Assembly: GCA_003233255.1 (NCBI GenBank)
Contig: QILH01000177.1
Span: forward strand, 1 to 34,941
Length of the DNA stretch: 34,941 nucleotides
Source of the DNA: Gammaproteobacteria bacterium
Lineage (GTDB): Bacteria > Pseudomonadota > Gammaproteobacteria > UBA6429 > Thiohalophilaceae
Direction: 5' to 3'
The translations under genes and the position numbers were made by a program. How positions within the stretch are numbered: position 1 is the stretch's first letter; each line of letters begins with the position of its first letter. Shown piece by piece: positions 14,950 to 27,698 of the stretch. Under the pieces are notes generated by a model. The model was given only the letters and a program-made list of their open reading frames with translations, did no database searches and was not told the DNA's origin.

Positions 14950-16757
14950 TTAACTGGCTTCTCGTGAAGCTCGTTTGCGCTCATGTTCCTTCAGGAATTT
15001 CTTACGAATACGGATGCTGTTCGGCGTCACTTCAACCAGCTCGTCATCATCAATGAATTCCAGCGCCTGTTCCAGGGTTAATTTTATCGGAGGAGTGAGA
15101 ACAATGTTTTCATCGGTACCTGCCGCTCGTATGTTGGTAAGCTGTTTCGCTTTTAGCGGATTAACCACTAAATCATTATCCCGCGAATGGATGCCCACGA
15201 TCATACCTTCATAGATTTCGGTACCCGGCCCAAGGATTAAACGTCCTCGTTCCTGTAAATTAAACAATGCAAAACCCAGTGATTTTCCAGTACCGTTCGA
15301 TATCATGACACCGTTGTTACGCTGCCCGTAATAGCCTTTTTTAATCGGGCCATATCGGTCAAAAATAGTATAAATTAAGCACGTAAAAATTCGGTTCGAA
15401 AACCAATCAGACCGCGCGCCGGCATAATGTAATCGACCTTAACTCGTCCTTTGCCATCCGGCTCGATGTTCTGCAGGTCACCACCACGCTGACTTAATTT
15501 CTCAATTATCGTCCCCTGATGCTCCGTTTCAACATCAACCGTAACCTGTTCGTAGGGTTCGCATAACTCGCCGTCTATTTCTTTGATAATAACTTCAGGA
15601 CGGGAAACGCCCAGTTCGTAGCCTTCACGGCGCATGTTTTCAATCAGAATAGAGAGATGTAACTCGCCACGACCTGATACTTTTAGCTTGTCTGGATCTT
15701 CCGTATCCTCCACTCGCAGGGCAACGTTATGAATTAATTCACGTTCAAGTCGCTCGCGAACCTGTCTGGAGGTAACAAATTTACCGTCTTTACCCGCAAA
15801 TGGAGAGGTATTTACCTGAAAGGTCATGGAGATGGTCGGTTCATCCACCGTTAAGGGCGGTAACATCTCAATGTGAGATGGATCACATAAGGTATCGGAA
15901 ATGTTTAATGGATCAATACCGGTGAAAGCAACAATATCACCAGCTTGAGCATCGGCTACATCAATCCGTTCAAGACCCGAAAAGCCCGACAATTGTAAAA
16001 CCCGTCCATTTCGAGTTTTCCCATCACGATCCATAATCGCAACCGGCGAATTCGCCTTGATCCTGCCACGGTTGATTCGACCGACCCCAATAACACCAAC
16101 ATAGCTATTATAATCCAGTGCCGTTACCTGCATCTGAAACGAACCATCAACATCAACGTCTGGCGCACTGACCTGTGAAATAATGGTTTCAAATAATGGC
16201 GTCATATCACCTTCATGCACGTCCGAATCCAGTCCTGCATAGCCACCTAAGGCTGAGGCATACACCACAGGAAAATCAAGCTGTTCATCGGTTGCGCCGA
16301 GACGATCAAAGAGATCAAAGGTTTGATCAACGACCCAGTCAGCACGAGCACTGGGACGGTCTATTTTGTTGACAACGACAATCGGTTTCAGGCCCAGTGC
16401 AAAAGCCTTCTGAGTTACAAAACGTGTTTGTGGCATCGGCCCGTCAACGGCATCAACCAGCAGCAAAACTGAATCAACCATCGACAGGACGCGTTCGACT
16501 TCACCACCAAAATCAGCATGTCCCGGCGTATCAACGATATTGATATGATAATCCTGCCAGTCCAGAGCCGTGTTTTTGGCTAGAATAGTAATACCGCGTT
16601 CTTTTTCCAGATCGTTCGAATCCATTACACGCTCAGGCGCATCAGCCCGCTCCCCAAGAGTGCCGGATTGCTGCAAAAGTTGATCAACGAGCGTTGTTTT
16701 TCCATGATCAACGTGCGCGATGATGGCGATGTTTCTGAGTTTATCGGTTGTGTGCAT
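14950..16757 (-). pseudogene. typA: typA/bipA GTPase interrupted by an apparent deletion/frameshift
   Basis: ORF 15375..16757 encodes the TypA N-terminus (NIAIIAHVDHGKTTLVDQLL) and ends prematurely at ...GLIGFRTEFLRA*. ORF 14950..15306 and its upstream in-frame extension (LIYTIFDRYGPIKKGYYGQRNNGVMISNGTGKSLGFALFNLQERG) encode the TypA C-terminus in another frame. Confidence 0.85.
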
Positions 16758-16947: not shown

Positions 16948-18765
16948 TCATTTATTTTGTATGTATTTTCGCCACCCACCATATTGGCTAATATCCTCTG
17001 CCGTTGAGATTGCATAGCCCTCACAGATAAAACCACTCAGCCAGTTACCATTGTGCAGCTCAACCTTACCGATTCCCAGCGGGGCAGGAATAGCCGCAAC
17101 AAATGAACCCAGTTCGCTTGCCGATATTGACCAGACCTCGACCTCAATCTCACGTCCATTCTCATCATCGCGCACCAGACCAGGGCGATAAGGCGGTCCC
17201 CCGGCAAGCGCGAAAAATCGATAATGTTTAGACGTTGTCGTTTTAGACTTAAGATAGGCCCCCCGCTCGACAAGCTGCCAGTTTAACGGCAGGCCTTCTA
17301 AATGAGCACCACAAACGGCCAGAGAGACTCTTTCATCTGATTCAAGAGTTGGGAGCATTGTGTGATCATCAACTACCTCGGAGAATGGAAGGTTTGACGC
17401 CCCTACGGCCAGCAAAAAATCCTGCTGAAATTTATTTGCATAGGAAAGCAGTTTACGATCAGACTGGGCTAGATGGCTCAAGGTGATCCCGAAAGGCAAA
17501 CCATTATCTAATAGACCACAGGGAATCGCTATACCACAACAATCTAACAGGTTCATATAGTTTGTGTAATAACCCAGATTGCTGTTCAACGTGACAGGAT
17601 CTTTTTCTATCGCATCAATCGTATACGTCGTGCCAACGGTAGGCGTGACCAGAAAATCAATCGCAGACAATACTAAACGAGCCTGTTTACGAAATGCCTG
17701 CATTTTGTATTCCGCTTTAAACGCATCACTCGCCGTCTTATCGCGGCCACCACCAATGATGGTGTTGATAACCGGCAACAGGGCTTGTGGGTTGTTATTA
17801 ATTACGTCTTCAATAGCGGCGTATCGTTCCGCAACCCAGGGTCCTGCATACAGTAAGCGTGCGGCGTCAAGGAAGCAGCTGAAATCAATTTCTTTTTTGG
17901 TGCCCCCTGCTTTTTCCAGTTTTTCAATGCTTGCCTGAAAAAGATTTTTTGCGGAAATATTACCAAAAAACTCAAGCTGCTCATCTTTGGGAACCCCAAA
18001 AACAAAATTATGTTCCACCTTGCCAAAGTGGCGATGATTATTTTTGAAAACACATTTTCTTGCATACTGATCCTGTTCATCATAACTGGCGGCTATATTG
18101 AAAATATCATTCGCGTCGGTTGCGGTTAATGCAAAAATACTTACACAATCCAGGCTGCGACAAGCAGGTACAACGCCTTGCATGCTTAATAGACCCTTTG
18201 ATGGTTTGAGTCCGACGATATTATTTAAAGCCGCCGGTACTCGACCCGACCCCGCCGTATCCGTACCTAAGGAAAAAGATACCAGACCTAATGATACCGC
18301 CACCGCCGACCCCGAACTCGATCCACCTGAAATATAGTCTTTATTGAAGGCATTTCGGCATGGCCCCCATGGCTCGGGCGAACGAACGCCAACCAGGCCT
18401 GTAGCAAATTGATCCATATTTGTTTTGCCGATAGGAATGGCGCCTGCGTTAATTAATTCCTGCACGACAAAAGCGGATTCACTCGGGATATACTCGTAAT
18501 CAGGGCAGCCTGCCGTGGTGGGTATGTCCTGCAAATCAATATTGTCTTTAATTGCGAAAGGAATTCCGTATAAGGGTAAATCAGCATGACTGGATTCTTC
18601 TAGTATTTTTAAATACGGTTCTAACTCTGTATTACTTAATCGATAAATCCAGATATTGTGATCCAGATAGCCATCACATCGATTTAATATAGACGTTACC
18701 AGAGCACGAGGAGTTATCACATTATTCAAGTAGGCCCTTCGTAAAGTCGATATAGAAATATTCAT
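16948..18765 (-). CDS. atzF: allophanate hydrolase (amidase family with C-terminal AtzF-type domain)
   Basis: Amidase signature PLYGIPFAIKDNIDLQDIPTTAGCPDY and GGSSSGSAVAVSLGLVSFSLGTDTAGSGRVPAALNNIVGLKPSKG. Adjacent to the carboxylase gene. Confidence 0.93.
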   Translation of the reverse strand: MNISISTLRRAYLNNVITPRALVTSILNRCDGYLDHNIWIYRLSNTELEPYLKILEESSHADLPLYGIPFAIKDNIDLQDIPTTAGCPDYEYIPSESAFVVQELINAGAIPIGKTNMDQFATGLVGVRSPEPWGPCRNAFNKDYISGGSSSGSAVAVSLGLVSFSLGTDTAGSGRVPAALNNIVGLKPSKGLLSMQGVVPACRSLDCVSIFALTATDANDIFNIAASYDEQDQYARKCVFKNNHRHFGKVEHNFVFGVPKDEQLEFFGNISAKNLFQASIEKLEKAGGTKKEIDFSCFLDAARLLYAGPWVAERYAAIEDVINNNPQALLPVINTIIGGGRDKTASDAFKAEYKMQAFRKQARLVLSAIDFLVTPTVGTTYTIDAIEKDPVTLNSNLGYYTNYMNLLDCCGIAIPCGLLDNGLPFGITLSHLAQSDRKLLSYANKFQQDFLLAVGASNLPFSEVVDDHTMLPTLESDERVSLAVCGAHLEGLPLNWQLVERGAYLKSKTTTSKHYRFFALAGGPPYRPGLVRDDENGREIEVEVWSISASELGSFVAAIPAPLGIGKVELHNGNWLSGFICEGYAISTAEDISQYGGWRKYIQNK

Positions 18766-22375: not shown

Positions 22376-22460
22376 ATGCTTGTAATTTTTACTACAAGTG
22401 ACAGGCCGTCCCATCGTGATACGTTCGTCTAACGGGTCGTCCCGCCGACAAAAAGTAGTA

Positions 22461-23099
22461 TTAACCCCAGATTAGCATTTCGATCGGCGTAGGGTTGTAG
22501 CCATTGCAGGGATTGTTTAATTGCGGACAGTTCGAAACTAACACTATCACGTCCATTTTAGCTTCCAGTTCAACATATTTCCCGGCTGCTGAAATTCCGT
22601 CTTCAAATGTTAATTCGCCTTCTGGAGTAACCGGCACATTCATGAAAAAATTAATATTGTGAGTAATATCGCGTTTACTCATATTAAACTGTTCGTTTTC
22701 GGCTACTGCCAACATCCAGCTATCCCGACACGCGTGCATGCATTTTTTTTCAAGAGCATAACGTACGGTATTACTTTCTGTGGCACAGGCTCCTCCTAGA
22801 GTGTCATGACGACCACAGGTATCGGCTATGATCTCCAACATTGGGTTGCATTCGTTCGACATCAAAACCGTTCCGGCAGAAAGATAAACATTGCCTTGCT
22901 CTCTAATCGTATCCATCGCGCTATAGCGTTCCGTAGGATCTTCAGCAGAATAAAAAAGGGTATCTGCGGCCTGATTTCCCTCCAGATCCAGTATTCGAAC
23001 CGTTTGCCCTTTGCTTATGGATCGTATGAAATAATCACCCGCCAGGACGATCTCACGAAAACTCGCCTGCGAAGAGGATAGCAGGCTTTCCTTAATCAC
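22461..23099 (-). CDS. urea carboxylase-associated protein 2-like (DUF1989; putative carboxyguanidine deiminase subunit)
   Basis: [49 protein letters not shown]...[21 protein letters not shown], family typical of urea carboxylase loci. Confidence 0.9.
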
Positions 23100-23116: not shown

Positions 23117-23854
23117 TTAAGCTCCTAACCCAAGGTGATAAATTCTATTATTCTCAAATCCACGTTGATTCTCCGTACAGGAGTTCATACAAAGATCATC
23201 AGCGTTTATTGGTTGTGAAGTCAGTATTTCATAGTGTACAGGTTTTTGGGGATACGTTTTCTGTTTATTCAGTGGATGTGGGCAGGTATGTAAAATTAAC
23301 AGCGTGTCCATTTCGAATCTGAGCTGGATGAAATCGCCAGCACTAGAATGATTCTCGATATACCGAAGATTTCCTTCAACATCGGTTTCAACACGACTAA
23401 ACAAATTTAAATTTGCAGCCATATCTTTTTTTCCAAGTCCATATTTGGCTAACTCAACTAAAAAGCTGTCATAGCCATTTTTATACCAGTCATTGTGGTG
23501 GTCTTGATAGTTATGTTCACCCCATTTCTCAATCACCATGGGACGGGTGATATTGCCGCAAACGGTTTCATGCCAACCTGTTGTGTCATCTACAACCGAA
23601 CAAAATATGCGCCCCATATCTGAGTACAAACAATGTCCCCTGGTTATCTTGAATGTGTGTTGGCATTTTAATGTATCAGGGGCATTGTAACGCTCTAACA
23701 TATTTTCAGGATTATAAAATAACATCCCAACATTGGCCCCGCCCTCTATGTCCGTGAGCTTTAATGTCGTCCCTTTTCGCATTCGCATCGACCAGTGACA
23801 AGCCCCATTCAGCGTGTCCGAGTATAAAACAGGGTCTGTAGAATTATTTGGCAT
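23117..23854 (-). CDS. urea carboxylase-associated protein 1-like (DUF1989; putative carboxyguanidine deiminase subunit)
   Basis: [69 protein letters not shown]. Upstream of its paralogue with a 17-nt gap. Confidence 0.9.
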
Positions 23855-23875: not shown

Positions 23876-24337
23876 CTAATTTGACCCAGTCTGAGTCATT
23901 GGATGAAGTTGTGGCATTATTGCCGTGGAGATTAATAATTTACCTGACATGACGCCTCGACACGATAGCATTTGGTCAGCAATAGAATTCAATGTTTCTG
24001 TTGGCCCCTGTACTAAAATAACTTCCAACGTTTGTGAATCAATCAAATTAATATGCAAAGAACTAATTACTTCATTTATATATTTATGTTGTATAGCCGC
24101 CAATTTATTAACCAGCCCATGAGTAGAGTGATCGTAAACCAGATTTATGGTGCCGGCCATAATATTCTGTCCGACATCTTTTTTATGCTCGGTAACTTGA
24201 GTGCTCACTAATTCAGAGATTGCCTGCGAGCGACTACCAAACCCTCTACTATCCAACATTTCATCAAACTCAGTTAGCAATCTCTCGGGCAGCGAGATAC
24301 TAATTCGGGTTAACTCTGACTTGACGCTAATATCCAT
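23876..24337 (-). CDS. NikR-like ribbon-helix-helix transcriptional regulator with ACT-like C-terminal domain
   Basis: N-terminal RHH: LTRISISLPERLLTEFDEMLDSRGFGSRSQAISELV. C-terminal NikR-like domain: TINLVYDHSTHGLVNKLAAIQHKYINEVISSLHINLIDSQTLEVILVQG. Confidence 0.88.
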   Translation of the reverse strand: MDISVKSELTRISISLPERLLTEFDEMLDSRGFGSRSQAISELVSTQVTEHKKDVGQNIMAGTINLVYDHSTHGLVNKLAAIQHKYINEVISSLHINLIDSQTLEVILVQGPTETLNSIADQMLSCRGVMSGKLLISTAIMPQLHPMTQTGSN

Positions 24338-24355
24338 GATGATTAATTAAACTTT

Positions 24356-25273
24356 TTATTCAACATGATCTACATCGTCATCCACCGGCACCATGTTCAT
24401 CATATTCATGTGATCACCGGGTAACTCTGGATCTTCACTGTCTGCTGGATGAATCAGCTCTTCTAATCTTGCCTTGGTCGCTAAAAATTCCGGGCTCAAA
24501 AATTGTTCGGGATTGCGAGGCCTGGGCACGGGCACCTCAACAATTTCCTGTACTTCTCCGGGATTCGCTTTTAATACCAGTACTCTATCTGCGAGATAAA
24601 CCGCTTCATCTAAATCATGGGTAATAAACAGTATGGTTACATCAATATTACGCCAGATATCCAGTAGATAGGACTGCATTTTAGCTCGCGTTTGTGAGTC
24701 AAGCGCTCCAAAGGGTTCATCCATCAACAAAATCCTGGGTTTATTTGCCAGCGCACGAGCAATGGCGACGCGTTGTTTCATACCTCCAGATAATTGATGT
24801 GGATAGGCATCAGCAAACTTGTCCAACCCAACCAGATCAATCCATTGCAACGCATCTTCTTCCGCCGGCCCTTTTCCATGCCCTGCTATCTCAAGCCCAA
24901 ACATGACGTTACGTTTAACAGACAACCAGGGAAATAGTGTATAACCTTGAAATACCATACCTCGATCCGGGCCAGGCCCGTCAATTTCATTCCCATCGAG
25001 CAATACCTGACCGGACGTTTTAGTCTCTAATCCGGCGAGTGTCCTGATTAAAGTAGACTTACCACACCCCGATGGACCAATAACACATACAAACTCACGT
25101 CGGTAGGTTTTAAAATTAAGAGCTTTTAAAGCCACGACATCATCAGTGGGGGTTTCAAATATCTTTGTTAGATTTTTAATGTTCAGGATGACAGGACGCT
25201 GTTTTAGTTTATCAAAACGAGCCTTCACTTCATCAGACTGATCTAAATAGCTGGGTAAATCGAGTTTATTCAT
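24356..25273 (-). CDS. ABC transporter ATP-binding protein (nitrate/sulfonate/taurine-type family)
   Basis: Walker [10 protein letters not shown], signature [15 protein letters not shown], Walker [14 protein letters not shown]-loop [17 protein letters not shown]. Confidence 0.95.
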
Positions 25274-25293: not shown

Positions 25294-26253
25294 TTAAGAT
25301 AATGACTTATGTTGTTCCCACGGGAATAGATGTTTTCCAATCAATCTTAAAATAATATCGCTCGATAACCCTATGATACCAATCATCATGATCGCCGCAT
25401 AAACGTTATCAAAATTTTTGTATCGTGCCTGTTGCGTTATGAACCAGGTAATTCCCGAACTGGAACCAATTAATTCCGCAACGATTAAATAGGTCCAGGC
25501 CCAGCCTAGTAAAATTCGCAAATCACGGAACAAGTTAGTGCTAATTCCGGGTAAAACTACTTTGAATAATAAAGATGTGCGTTTTGCTCCCAAGGTTAAA
25601 GCTGCTTCTACTAACATTGGATCAAGTTTGCGTGTGGTATTAGCAATGACTAAAACCTGTTGAAAAAACGTACCTATGAATATGATCGCAATCTTTGGCC
25701 CCTGATGGATACCGAGGATGGCCACGGCCAGTGCCCCGAAGGCCGGAGCAGGTAAATAGCGAAAAAATTCTATAAACGGTTCATTTAGTTTGGAAAAAAT
25801 CCGGTATGTTCCCATTAATACCCCTAAGGGGACTCCAAAAATCGAGGAAATAACAAACCCCCAGAATATAACCTTGATACTGTCCCATAGACTCTCGTGT
25901 AACCACTTTTCATTTCGTCTTGTGGGTTCAGTTACAAAGGCAGTATAAAATGCGGATGCCACTTCATCAGGAGCAGGAAAATAAATAGGATTCGCAGGCA
26001 GGCCTTCCGGAATGGCTTTCCCTTCAGCTAAAACATTAGCTTTTTCTCTTTCAAATATTTCACGATCAACCAGCAGCCCCTCACTAAAATAAGATACATC
26101 TCCAGGAACGGTAATCTCAACTTTAGGATGCCAGACGTAAGGAACATAACTAACAATAGACCAGACCGTCAATGGGATAATAAAACTTAACGTGGCCAGA
26201 ATAAAATTCTGGTATTGTTTTAATTTCCGTCTCAATATAGATGATGCAGACAT
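25294..26253 (-). CDS. ABC transporter permease (nitrate/sulfonate/taurine-type family)
   Basis: Multiple TM helices. [48 protein letters not shown] contains the EAA loop. Extended periplasmic insertion after TM1. Confidence 0.92.
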
Positions 26254-26391: not shown

Positions 26392-27369
26392 TTACATCTT
26401 ATCGATTATCGATGAGTCAATATAAGACTCATACTTCTCAGGCTTTTTATACACCTTATTCGCAACATTGAAGTCATCGGATATTTTCGACGAACCATAA
26501 ATGGATTTAAAACCATCGGCTTTTTTGAAGTAAGCTTTCGCTTCTTTTAGCGTCAGTATTTTAGTACCCTTAACAATCTCGGCATACTGCTTTGGTTTTA
26601 ATCCTACGCGTGATGCCATAATTTTTATAGCATCATCATGCGTCTTTGGGTTTTGAATATATTCGACTATGCGATACCACACTTTCGCAATTTTTGCGTA
26701 CTCCGCCTTACGTGCAGAATAACTCTGTGGCGTGGCGGCAAGTGTGTCATAGATTAATCCAGGTTTATCCGCACTGCTATAGAGTTTTTTGGATCCAGGA
26801 ACCAGTTTTAATGCCTGACCGGAATTCGGTTGCCACGCTACTATTGCTGCAACCTGACCTGATGCGAGCACTTGCGGAGTTTCATTGGTCGGCACATTGA
26901 CAAGTTCAACATCTTTCTCACTCATGCCGTGGTCTTTTAACGCATTCAATAAAATTAAATGCCCAACGAAGCCAATTTCAACTCCAACTTTTTTGCCCTT
27001 AAGATCTTTTATCGATTTAATCCCCGGTGCACCAACGACCATATCATTACCGTTACTATAATCATTGATCAGAAACATAACGCTCTTTGCGCCCGTTGAC
27101 CCGGTAACCAGCGCATCGCCATTGGTCATCGCTACGGCATCGAGCTTACCTGCCGCAAAAGCATCCATTGACGCAACATAATCGAACCACTCAAACTGCA
27201 CCTTAACGCCGGCTTCTTTAAACCAGTCTTTTTCAATCCCAACTTCCCAGGCAACCCAGCCCGGCCAATCGCTATAACCTATTCTAATTGGGTCTGCGGC
27301 CTGGGCCGTCGCCGATAATAAAAACGCCGCGACCAGGGTCACCAGATATTTTTTTATTGTTAATCTCAT
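26392..27369 (-). CDS. ABC transporter periplasmic substrate-binding protein (NMT1/TauA/SsuA-like)
   Basis: Signal peptide [27 protein letters not shown], then [38 protein letters not shown] at 27369 preceded by GAGGAG SD; the longer ORF start at 27384 is a TTG. Confidence 0.93.
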
Positions 27370-27431
27370 CAATTCACTCCTCAAGTATTACAAAATTGGA
27401 TTTAAGTATTACTATTCTTTTACTACATCAG

Positions 27432-27447
27432 AGCAAAGGCTGTGCCA
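27432..27447 (-). promoter_or_regulatory. sigma-54 (RpoN) -24/-12 promoter upstream of the transporter/carboxylase operon
   Basis: Minus strand TGGCAC-AGCCT-TTGCT: GG (-24) and GC (-12) with exact 10-nt spacing, ~63 bp upstream of the ATG. Confidence 0.8.
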
Positions 27448-27511
27448 CGATTGTTTTATTAATATTTTTGATGTATTTCAATGGCTTATCATATCTGGCA
27501 TTAAATCATAC

Positions 27512-27526
27512 GCACCAGGAAGGCGC
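27512..27526. promoter_or_regulatory. probable NtrC binding site (enhancer)
   Basis: Minus strand GCGCC-TTCCT-GGTGC, one mismatch from the NtrC-type palindrome GCACC-N5-GGTGC, ~65 bp upstream of the -24 element. Confidence 0.6.
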
Positions 27527-27698
27527 AAGACATTTTATTTTGACTCATTATAGAGCGTAAAGCGGCTATTATTTGTTTATTTTAAACAGCCGTTCTCTAT
27601 GCAAAATCAATGACCGGCGTATGATGAAGTAATCTACTCTGAATATAAGTAACGACGGCTTGTTGCTTAATCCGTTCGCTAATTCAAACCCGTCACTA

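What the first reader, a model, noticed from the sequence alone, without database searches (positions are those of the whole stretch)
27432..27526. Sigma-54/NtrC promoter architecture for the carboxylase operon in place of a ykkC riboswitch
TGGCAC-N5-TTGCT has exact -24/-12 geometry. An NtrC-like palindrome GCGCC-N5-GGTGC is centred about 97 bp upstream of the predicted start site, a typical enhancer distance. Guanidine-I riboswitches often precede such operons, but I see no ykkC-like core here. This suggests control by nitrogen limitation plus the NikR-like protein.
Basis: partly seen in the sequence, partly recalled or inferred. Interest (0 to 1): 0.6.

Follow-up and report, generated by a model that had tools for sequence, protein, structure and literature searches.

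The report
NikR-derived repressor replaces guanidine riboswitch
The nitrogen-starvation promoter seen in front of this guanidine-eating operon is real, but what stands in for the usual guanidine riboswitch is probably a former nickel-sensing protein that lost its nickel site, binds a conserved DNA site over the transcription start and most likely senses guanidine, for which no protein regulator is known.

Summary
The sigma-54 promoter (TGGCAC-N5-TTGCT, 27447-27432, minus strand) and the NtrC-like palindrome about 98 bp upstream are real and conserved in relatives. 'In place of a ykkC riboswitch' is wrong: related operons that carry a Guanidine-I riboswitch have the same sigma-54 promoter just upstream of the aptamer. 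What differs is the guanidine sensor. Operons with a linked NikR-like gene (here 23876-24337) have no Guanidine-I aptamer in that leader; instead a 28-bp dyad, GTAWTAC-N14-GTAWTAC, lies across or just after the predicted transcription start. It has the geometry of the E. coli NikR operator. In this genome it occurs once, at 27385-27412. It is in all 18 readable leaders of NikR-linked units and in none of five riboswitch leaders. These NikR-like proteins form one clade in which the nickel cysteine is gone (0/19, against 22/22 kept in other NikRs). Best reading: NtrC/sigma-54 activation under nitrogen limitation, gated by a NikR-derived repressor that most likely senses guanidine, plus translational control by Guanidine-II. 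The ligand is inferred, not shown.

The parts
27511..27527 (-). NtrC-like enhancer palindrome TGCGCC-N5-GGTGCG, centre about -98
   Evidence: same place in L025
27432..27447 (-). sigma-54 -24/-12 promoter TGGCACAGCCTTTGCT
27385..27412 (-). Operator dyad GTAATAC-N14-GTAATAC (about +10 to +37), predicted binding site of the NikR-like protein
   Evidence: (only exact match in own genome)
26392..27369 (-). ABC transporter substrate-binding protein (NMT1/SsuA-like), first gene; ATG at 27369 after AGGAG (the TTG at 27384 in the ORF list is not the likely start)
25294..26253 (-). ABC permease
24356..25273 (-). ABC ATPase
23876..24337 (-). NikR-like ribbon-helix-helix regulator without the nickel Cys (H76 H87 N89 T95 in E. 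coli numbering)
23117..23854 (-). UAAP1 (DUF1989), one of the two presumed carboxyguanidine deiminase subunits
22461..23099 (-). UAAP2 (DUF1989), the other presumed carboxyguanidine deiminase subunit
22401..22448 (-). Guanidine-II (mini-ykkC) riboswitch, 28.0 bits (gathering score 32), directly before the carboxylase
   Evidence: same place above threshold in L007, L011, L050, L063, L054 and L119, L121
18767..22375 (-). Guanidine carboxylase (Asp at K. lactis 1330 and 1584 positions); likely ATG 22375, not 22414
16948..18765 (-). Allophanate hydrolase

Best explanation
The promoter at 27447-27432 is a sigma-54 promoter activated by NtrC~P bound near -98 when nitrogen is scarce. It transcribes a guanidine uptake and carboxylation operon. 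A NikR-derived repressor encoded within the operon binds GTAWTAC-N14-GTAWTAC across or just after the transcription start and blocks the promoter. Guanidine (or a compound made directly from it) most likely relieves the block. The protein thereby does the job that a Guanidine-I riboswitch does, downstream of the same kind of promoter, in relatives. Translation of the carboxylase is gated again by a Guanidine-II riboswitch. The operon thus needs two conditions: nitrogen limitation and guanidine. Shown here by sequence: promoter, operator, linkage, loss of the nickel site, swap with the aptamer, Guanidine-II. Inferred: that the protein binds the dyad, that it represses, and that guanidine is the ligand.
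For: sigma-54 site in 21 of 22 leaders of this transporter type, riboswitch-bearing ones included; rpoN in own genome; NtrC in 11 of 12 relatives; NtrC-dependent urea-carboxylase genes and associated transporter in Burkholderia cenocepacia (PMC5491218). Operator: sole exact match in own genome; 12-14/14 in all 18 readable leaders of NikR-linked units, phased at about -4 to +24 of the predicted start in most; absent from five riboswitch leaders and from canonical NikR/nickel-transporter loci; 28-bp geometry as GTATGA-N16-TCATAC of E. coli NikR (PMC7055735). Swap: NikR-linked units 0/11 with Guanidine-I in the same unit, 38/39 other genomes have it (Fisher p 3e-10 without correction for kinship); new cases G119, G759, G723, G439 follow the rule. 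Ni Cys lost in 19/19 against kept in 22/22. Guanidine carboxylase signature Asp.
Against: No binding or expression data exist. The swap represents only about two independent events on the transporter tree, so the correlation rests largely on descent. Own 70%-complete genome shows no NtrC above the curated cut-off. The NtrC-like site is weak or absent in some leaders (L026, L027, L030, L054, L050). G192 has its only exact operator before another gene pair (L155:11664), and its transporter leader has neither operator nor sigma-54 site. G213 has NikR and operator on a contig stretch without carboxylase genes. The ligand could be a pathway intermediate rather than guanidine.
Confidence: 0.72

Rival explanations
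1. The NikR-like protein binds the operator but senses another pathway signal (carboxyguanidine, allophanate, methylguanidine, ammonium or glutamine), not guanidine itself.
For: NikR C-terminal domains are ACT-like and such domains often bind amino acids (general knowledge). Many relatives carry a creatininase-like plus type III glutamine-synthetase-like pair in the same unit, so the imported compound may be a substituted guanidine.
Against: The aptamer that takes its place in matched operons (for example L152, with the same transporter and gene pair) is Guanidine-I, which in Vreelandella binds guanidine and discriminates against methylguanidine (PMC12508155).
Confidence: 0.22
2. The NikR-like protein is still a nickel or other metal regulator that ties guanidine use to metal status.
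For: It passes NCBIfam NikR cut-offs; two of the four nickel ligand positions are still His in the window protein.
Against: Cys95 is lost in 19/19 and His89 in 14/19 of the clade, with Glu30 of the second metal site changed to Gln in 17/19; no nickel transporter or nickel enzyme is in the operon; canonical NikRs next to nickel ECF transporters keep all four ligands.
Confidence: 0.05
3. One reading: sigma-54/NtrC control alone replaces riboswitch control, with no guanidine input at the promoter.
For: No Guanidine-I in the leader; sigma-54 site strong.
Against: sigma-54-like sites precede 32 of 56 Guanidine-I aptamers (6.7% in shuffles), so the two normally go together; a conserved operator lies over the start.
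Confidence: 0.05
4. The dyad is bound by an activator or an unrelated regulator, and the NikR-like protein acts elsewhere.
For: Binding has not been tested.
Against: Exact co-occurrence with the NikR-like gene, NikR-family spacing, and a position over the start that fits a repressor.
Confidence: 0.06

Closest known systems
E. coli NikR and nikABCDE operator
   Same: RHH plus NikR_C architecture; 28-bp dyad with 6-bp half-sites 16 bp apart, beginning GTAT and ending ATAC
   Different: Half-site GTATTA instead of GTATGA; nickel Cys (and mostly His89) lost; linked to guanidine catabolism, not nickel import
Guanidine-I (ykkC) riboswitch control of guanidine carboxylase operons
   Same: Same genes, same sigma-54 promoter type, presumably the same signal
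   Different: Sensor is a protein acting at initiation instead of an RNA acting on elongation
Vreelandella boliviensis guanidine carboxylase operon (Gd-I in the leader, Gd-II before gca; PMC12508155)
   Same: Guanidine-II before the carboxylase gene
   Different: Guanidine-I is replaced here by the NikR-like protein and its operator
NtrC/sigma-54 nitrogen regulon (B. cenocepacia urea-carboxylase genes; PMC5491218)
   Same: NtrC-type site plus -24/-12 promoter on urea-carboxylase-type genes
   Different: An added repressor operator at the start site

Membership tests
sigma-54 promoter | GG and GC 10 bp apart within TGGCACG-N4-TTGCW | tested here: met
sigma-54 promoter | RpoN in the genome | tested here: met
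sigma-54 promoter | RpoN-dependent transcription start | not testable with these tools
   needs RACE and an rpoN mutant
NtrC regulon | TGCACC-N5-GGTGCA-like site about 100 bp upstream | tested here: met
   10/12, conserved in L025; weak in some relatives
NtrC regulon | NtrC encoded in the genome | tested here: inconclusive
   not above cut-off in the 70%-complete own genome; present in 11 of 12 relatives
NikR (nickel-responsive regulator) | RHH plus NikR_C domains | tested here: met
NikR (nickel-responsive regulator) | High-affinity Ni ligands H76 H87 H89 C95 | tested here: not met
   H, H, N, T in the window; Cys absent in all 19 of the clade
NikR (nickel-responsive regulator) | Operator with 6-bp half-sites 16 bp apart | tested here: met
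   GTAATA-N16-TAATAC at 27412-27385; binding itself not tested
Guanidine-I riboswitch | RF00442 match in leader | tested here: not met
Guanidine-II riboswitch | Two hairpins with ACGR loops, RF01068 match | tested here: met
   GGGACGACCC and GGGACGGCC; 28.0 bits, below gathering 32; E 4e-4 locally; sole hit (E <= 1) in own genome
Guanidine carboxylase | Asp at K. lactis 1330 and 1584 positions (criterion in PMC11410670) | tested here: met
   AIGSVDFTGD and GLGDV aligned with KlUA

The most novel reading that the evidence does not exclude
A clade of NikR-derived proteins has changed from nickel to guanidine as ligand and is the first guanidine-responsive transcription factor, interchangeable in evolution with the Guanidine-I riboswitch behind the same sigma-54 promoter.
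Probability: 0.6. Interest if true: 0.82.

Novelty: new variant of a known kind. Interest (0 to 1): 0.74.

Why it matters
[quoted passage not shown] This clade is a concrete, testable candidate with a defined 28-bp operator. It also shows a protein sensor and an RNA sensor exchanged on the same operon, with the promoter left in place. And it warns that 'NikR' annotations in this clade are probably wrong about nickel.

Tried and rejected
Rfam at gathering threshold on the whole window gave nothing; the Guanidine-II element is visible only below threshold plus context. A low-threshold Rfam scan of the leader gave only chance matches. The idea that sigma-54 replaces the riboswitch was rejected by riboswitch leaders with the same promoter. 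Nickel control was rejected by the ligand loss. A urea rather than guanidine substrate was rejected by Asp at position 1330. Testing the swap on independent pairs lacked power (one pair); adding G723 gave two changes, and a single riboswitch clade was rejected with p 0.012, which rests on one row with few columns and a long branch. Literature search for NikR with guanidine and riboswitch found no paper (open-access library only). No structure prediction was run, as a single-chain model would not show the ligand site between subunits.

Full report
What was checked. The finding names a sigma-54 promoter and an NtrC-like palindrome on the minus strand, upstream of an operon that ends in a urea-carboxylase-type enzyme. 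Both are exactly there. TGGCACAGCCTTTGCT runs 27447-27432 and TGCGCCTTCCTGGTGCG runs 27527-27511, centred about 98 bp before the predicted start at 27421. The exact promoter pattern occurs 6 times in the 2.6-Mb genome (reversed control 0). A score as high as this one was reached in 0 of 1000 shuffles of the leader, and an NtrC match as good as this one in 0.6%. In the closest relative, L025 (an uncultured Ectothiorhodospiraceae; 88-91% identical transporter proteins), both elements stand at the same distances.

What the operon is. In order: substrate-binding protein, permease, ATPase, NikR-like regulator, UAAP1, UAAP2, carboxylase, allophanate hydrolase. The carboxylase has Asp at the position equivalent to K. 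lactis Asn1330 (AIGSVDFTGD) and the Asp1584 equivalent. That is the published criterion for guanidine, not urea, carboxylase (PMC11410670). UAAP1 and UAAP2 are taken as the two subunits of carboxyguanidine deiminase; the pathway is described in PMC11410670 and PMC12186494, the assignment of these two families to it is from my own knowledge.

Between UAAP2 and the carboxylase, 22448-22401 reads as two hairpins, GGGACGACCC and GGGACGGCC. It matches Guanidine-II (RF01068) at 28.0 bits, a little below the gathering score of 32; E 4e-4 for the stretch searched. It is the only Guanidine-II hit (E <= 1) of the own genome. Relatives have the same element in the same place above threshold (L007, L011, L050, L063, L054; L119, L121). 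Vreelandella has Guanidine-I in the leader and Guanidine-II before the carboxylase gene (PMC12508155). The window keeps the second and lacks the first. The mechanical ORF start at 22414 overlaps the element; ATG 22375 is the likely start.

What takes the place of Guanidine-I. Eighty genome loci with UAAP1 were fetched and mapped. Of 50 genomes scanned with RF00442, 38 of 39 without a NikR-like gene at the locus have a Guanidine-I match; the exception, L034, lies on a contig that starts just before the operon. Of 11 with the NikR-like gene, seven have none. The other four (L026, L027, L030, L054) have divergent units, with the riboswitch on the UAAP1 side and the NikR-like gene at the end of the opposite unit. 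So no unit has both. Four cases found afterwards follow the rule. G119 (same transporter, no NikR) has Guanidine-I directly before the transporter. G723 likewise. G759 and G439, the latter from another class, have the NikR-like gene and no Guanidine-I.

The operator. Lined up on the sigma-54 promoter, all leaders of NikR-linked units share GTAWTAC-N14-GTAWTAC between the -12 element and the start codon. It matches at 14/14 or 13/14 positions, with 12/14 in L156, in all 18 readable leaders. It spans about -4 to +24 of the predicted start in most, and +10 to +37 in the window and L025. The five riboswitch leaders score 7 to 9. In the own genome the pattern occurs once, here. Across 1.42 Mb of loci there were 21 hits at 13/14 or better; 20 lie in NikR-linked clusters or in L153, whose contig ends before the place where the NikR-like gene would be, and one is stray. 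In G127 the cluster has further copies before the carboxylase and UAAP1 genes; in G192 the copy precedes a creatininase-like/glutamine-synthetase-like pair. The 28-bp spacing and outer bases are those of the E. coli NikR operator GTATGA-N16-TCATAC (PMC7055735). Loci of canonical NikR with nickel ECF transporters have no full match.

The regulator. The 17 operon-linked NikR-like proteins tested form one clade, with support 100/99, separate from 22 other NikRs. All 22 others keep His76, His87, His89 and Cys95. In the operon-linked proteins (19 with the two later finds) Cys95 is Thr in 17 and Ile in 2, and His89 is kept in only 5; Glu30 of the second metal site is Gln in 17. One further, broken sequence at a contig's edge (L039) was left out. 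The canonical relatives sit beside nickel transporters. A nickel response through the known site is therefore very unlikely.

Promoter and sensor are separate layers. sigma-54 sites are found in 21 of 22 leaders of this transporter type, at -61 to -126 from the start codon when the NikR-like gene is linked, and at -230 to -250, upstream of the aptamer, when Guanidine-I is present. More widely, 32 of 56 Guanidine-I aptamers have a strong sigma-54-like site upstream, mostly 70 to 90 bp before the aptamer core, against 6.7% of shuffled sequences. RpoN is in the own genome. NtrC is above its cut-off in 11 of 12 relatives but not in the 70%-complete own genome. In Burkholderia cenocepacia, urea-carboxylase genes and the associated transporter depend on NtrC (PMC5491218). 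So sigma-54/NtrC is the common nitrogen input, and the guanidine input is either RNA or, here, probably protein.

Mechanism. Under nitrogen limitation NtrC~P at -98 drives open-complex formation by sigma-54 polymerase. Without guanidine the NikR-like protein covers the start and blocks transcription; guanidine or a close derivative releases it. The regulator's own place in the operon would make the switch self-limiting. Guanidine-II then allows translation of the ATP-consuming carboxylase only when guanidine is in the cell. Position, conservation and exchange for a guanidine aptamer make repression and guanidine sensing the most likely reading; neither has been measured.

Limits. Many genomes are metagenome bins. 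Counts are not independent: the transporter tree shows two exchanges (a single riboswitch clade is rejected with p 0.012, resting on one row with few columns). The NtrC-like site is weak in several leaders. No paper in the open-access library links NikR with guanidine and riboswitches, but subscription papers were not searched.

Noticed in passing
L007:5333-7493, L119:6030-8177, L152:3468-5619 (-), L169:5307-7486, L171:6169-8333: A creatininase-family hydrolase and a type III glutamate-ammonia ligase lie between the transporter and the regulator in many relatives (absent from the window), under either the NikR operator or Guanidine-I; perhaps a route for a substituted guanidine by gamma-glutamylation.
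   Followed up: partly
L155:11664 and L121:5338, 5510, 8162, 13814: Extra copies of the operator before the creatininase/ligase pair (G192) and before carboxylase and UAAP1 genes (G127): a small regulon.
   Followed up: partly
upstream of Guanidine-I aptamers in L042-L048, L056, L058, L062, L065, L071, L073, L078 and others: Strong sigma-54-like sites 70-90 bp upstream of the Guanidine-I core suggest a widespread promoter-plus-riboswitch gate for guanidine operons in Gammaproteobacteria.
   Followed up: partly
L024 carboxylase: Asn at the K. lactis 1330 position (urea type) although the gene sits with UAAP1/UAAP2 and its genome has a Guanidine-I match.
   Followed up: no
L170:15711-15830 (-) and 16262-16395 (+): Two divergent Guanidine-I riboswitches back to back, one for a lone substrate-binding protein and one for a UAAP1-like gene.
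   Followed up: no
L153 (G299 C173): Operator and sigma-54 site without a NikR-like gene found; the contig ends in the ATPase gene, so an unassembled NikR-like gene is predicted.
   Followed up: partly
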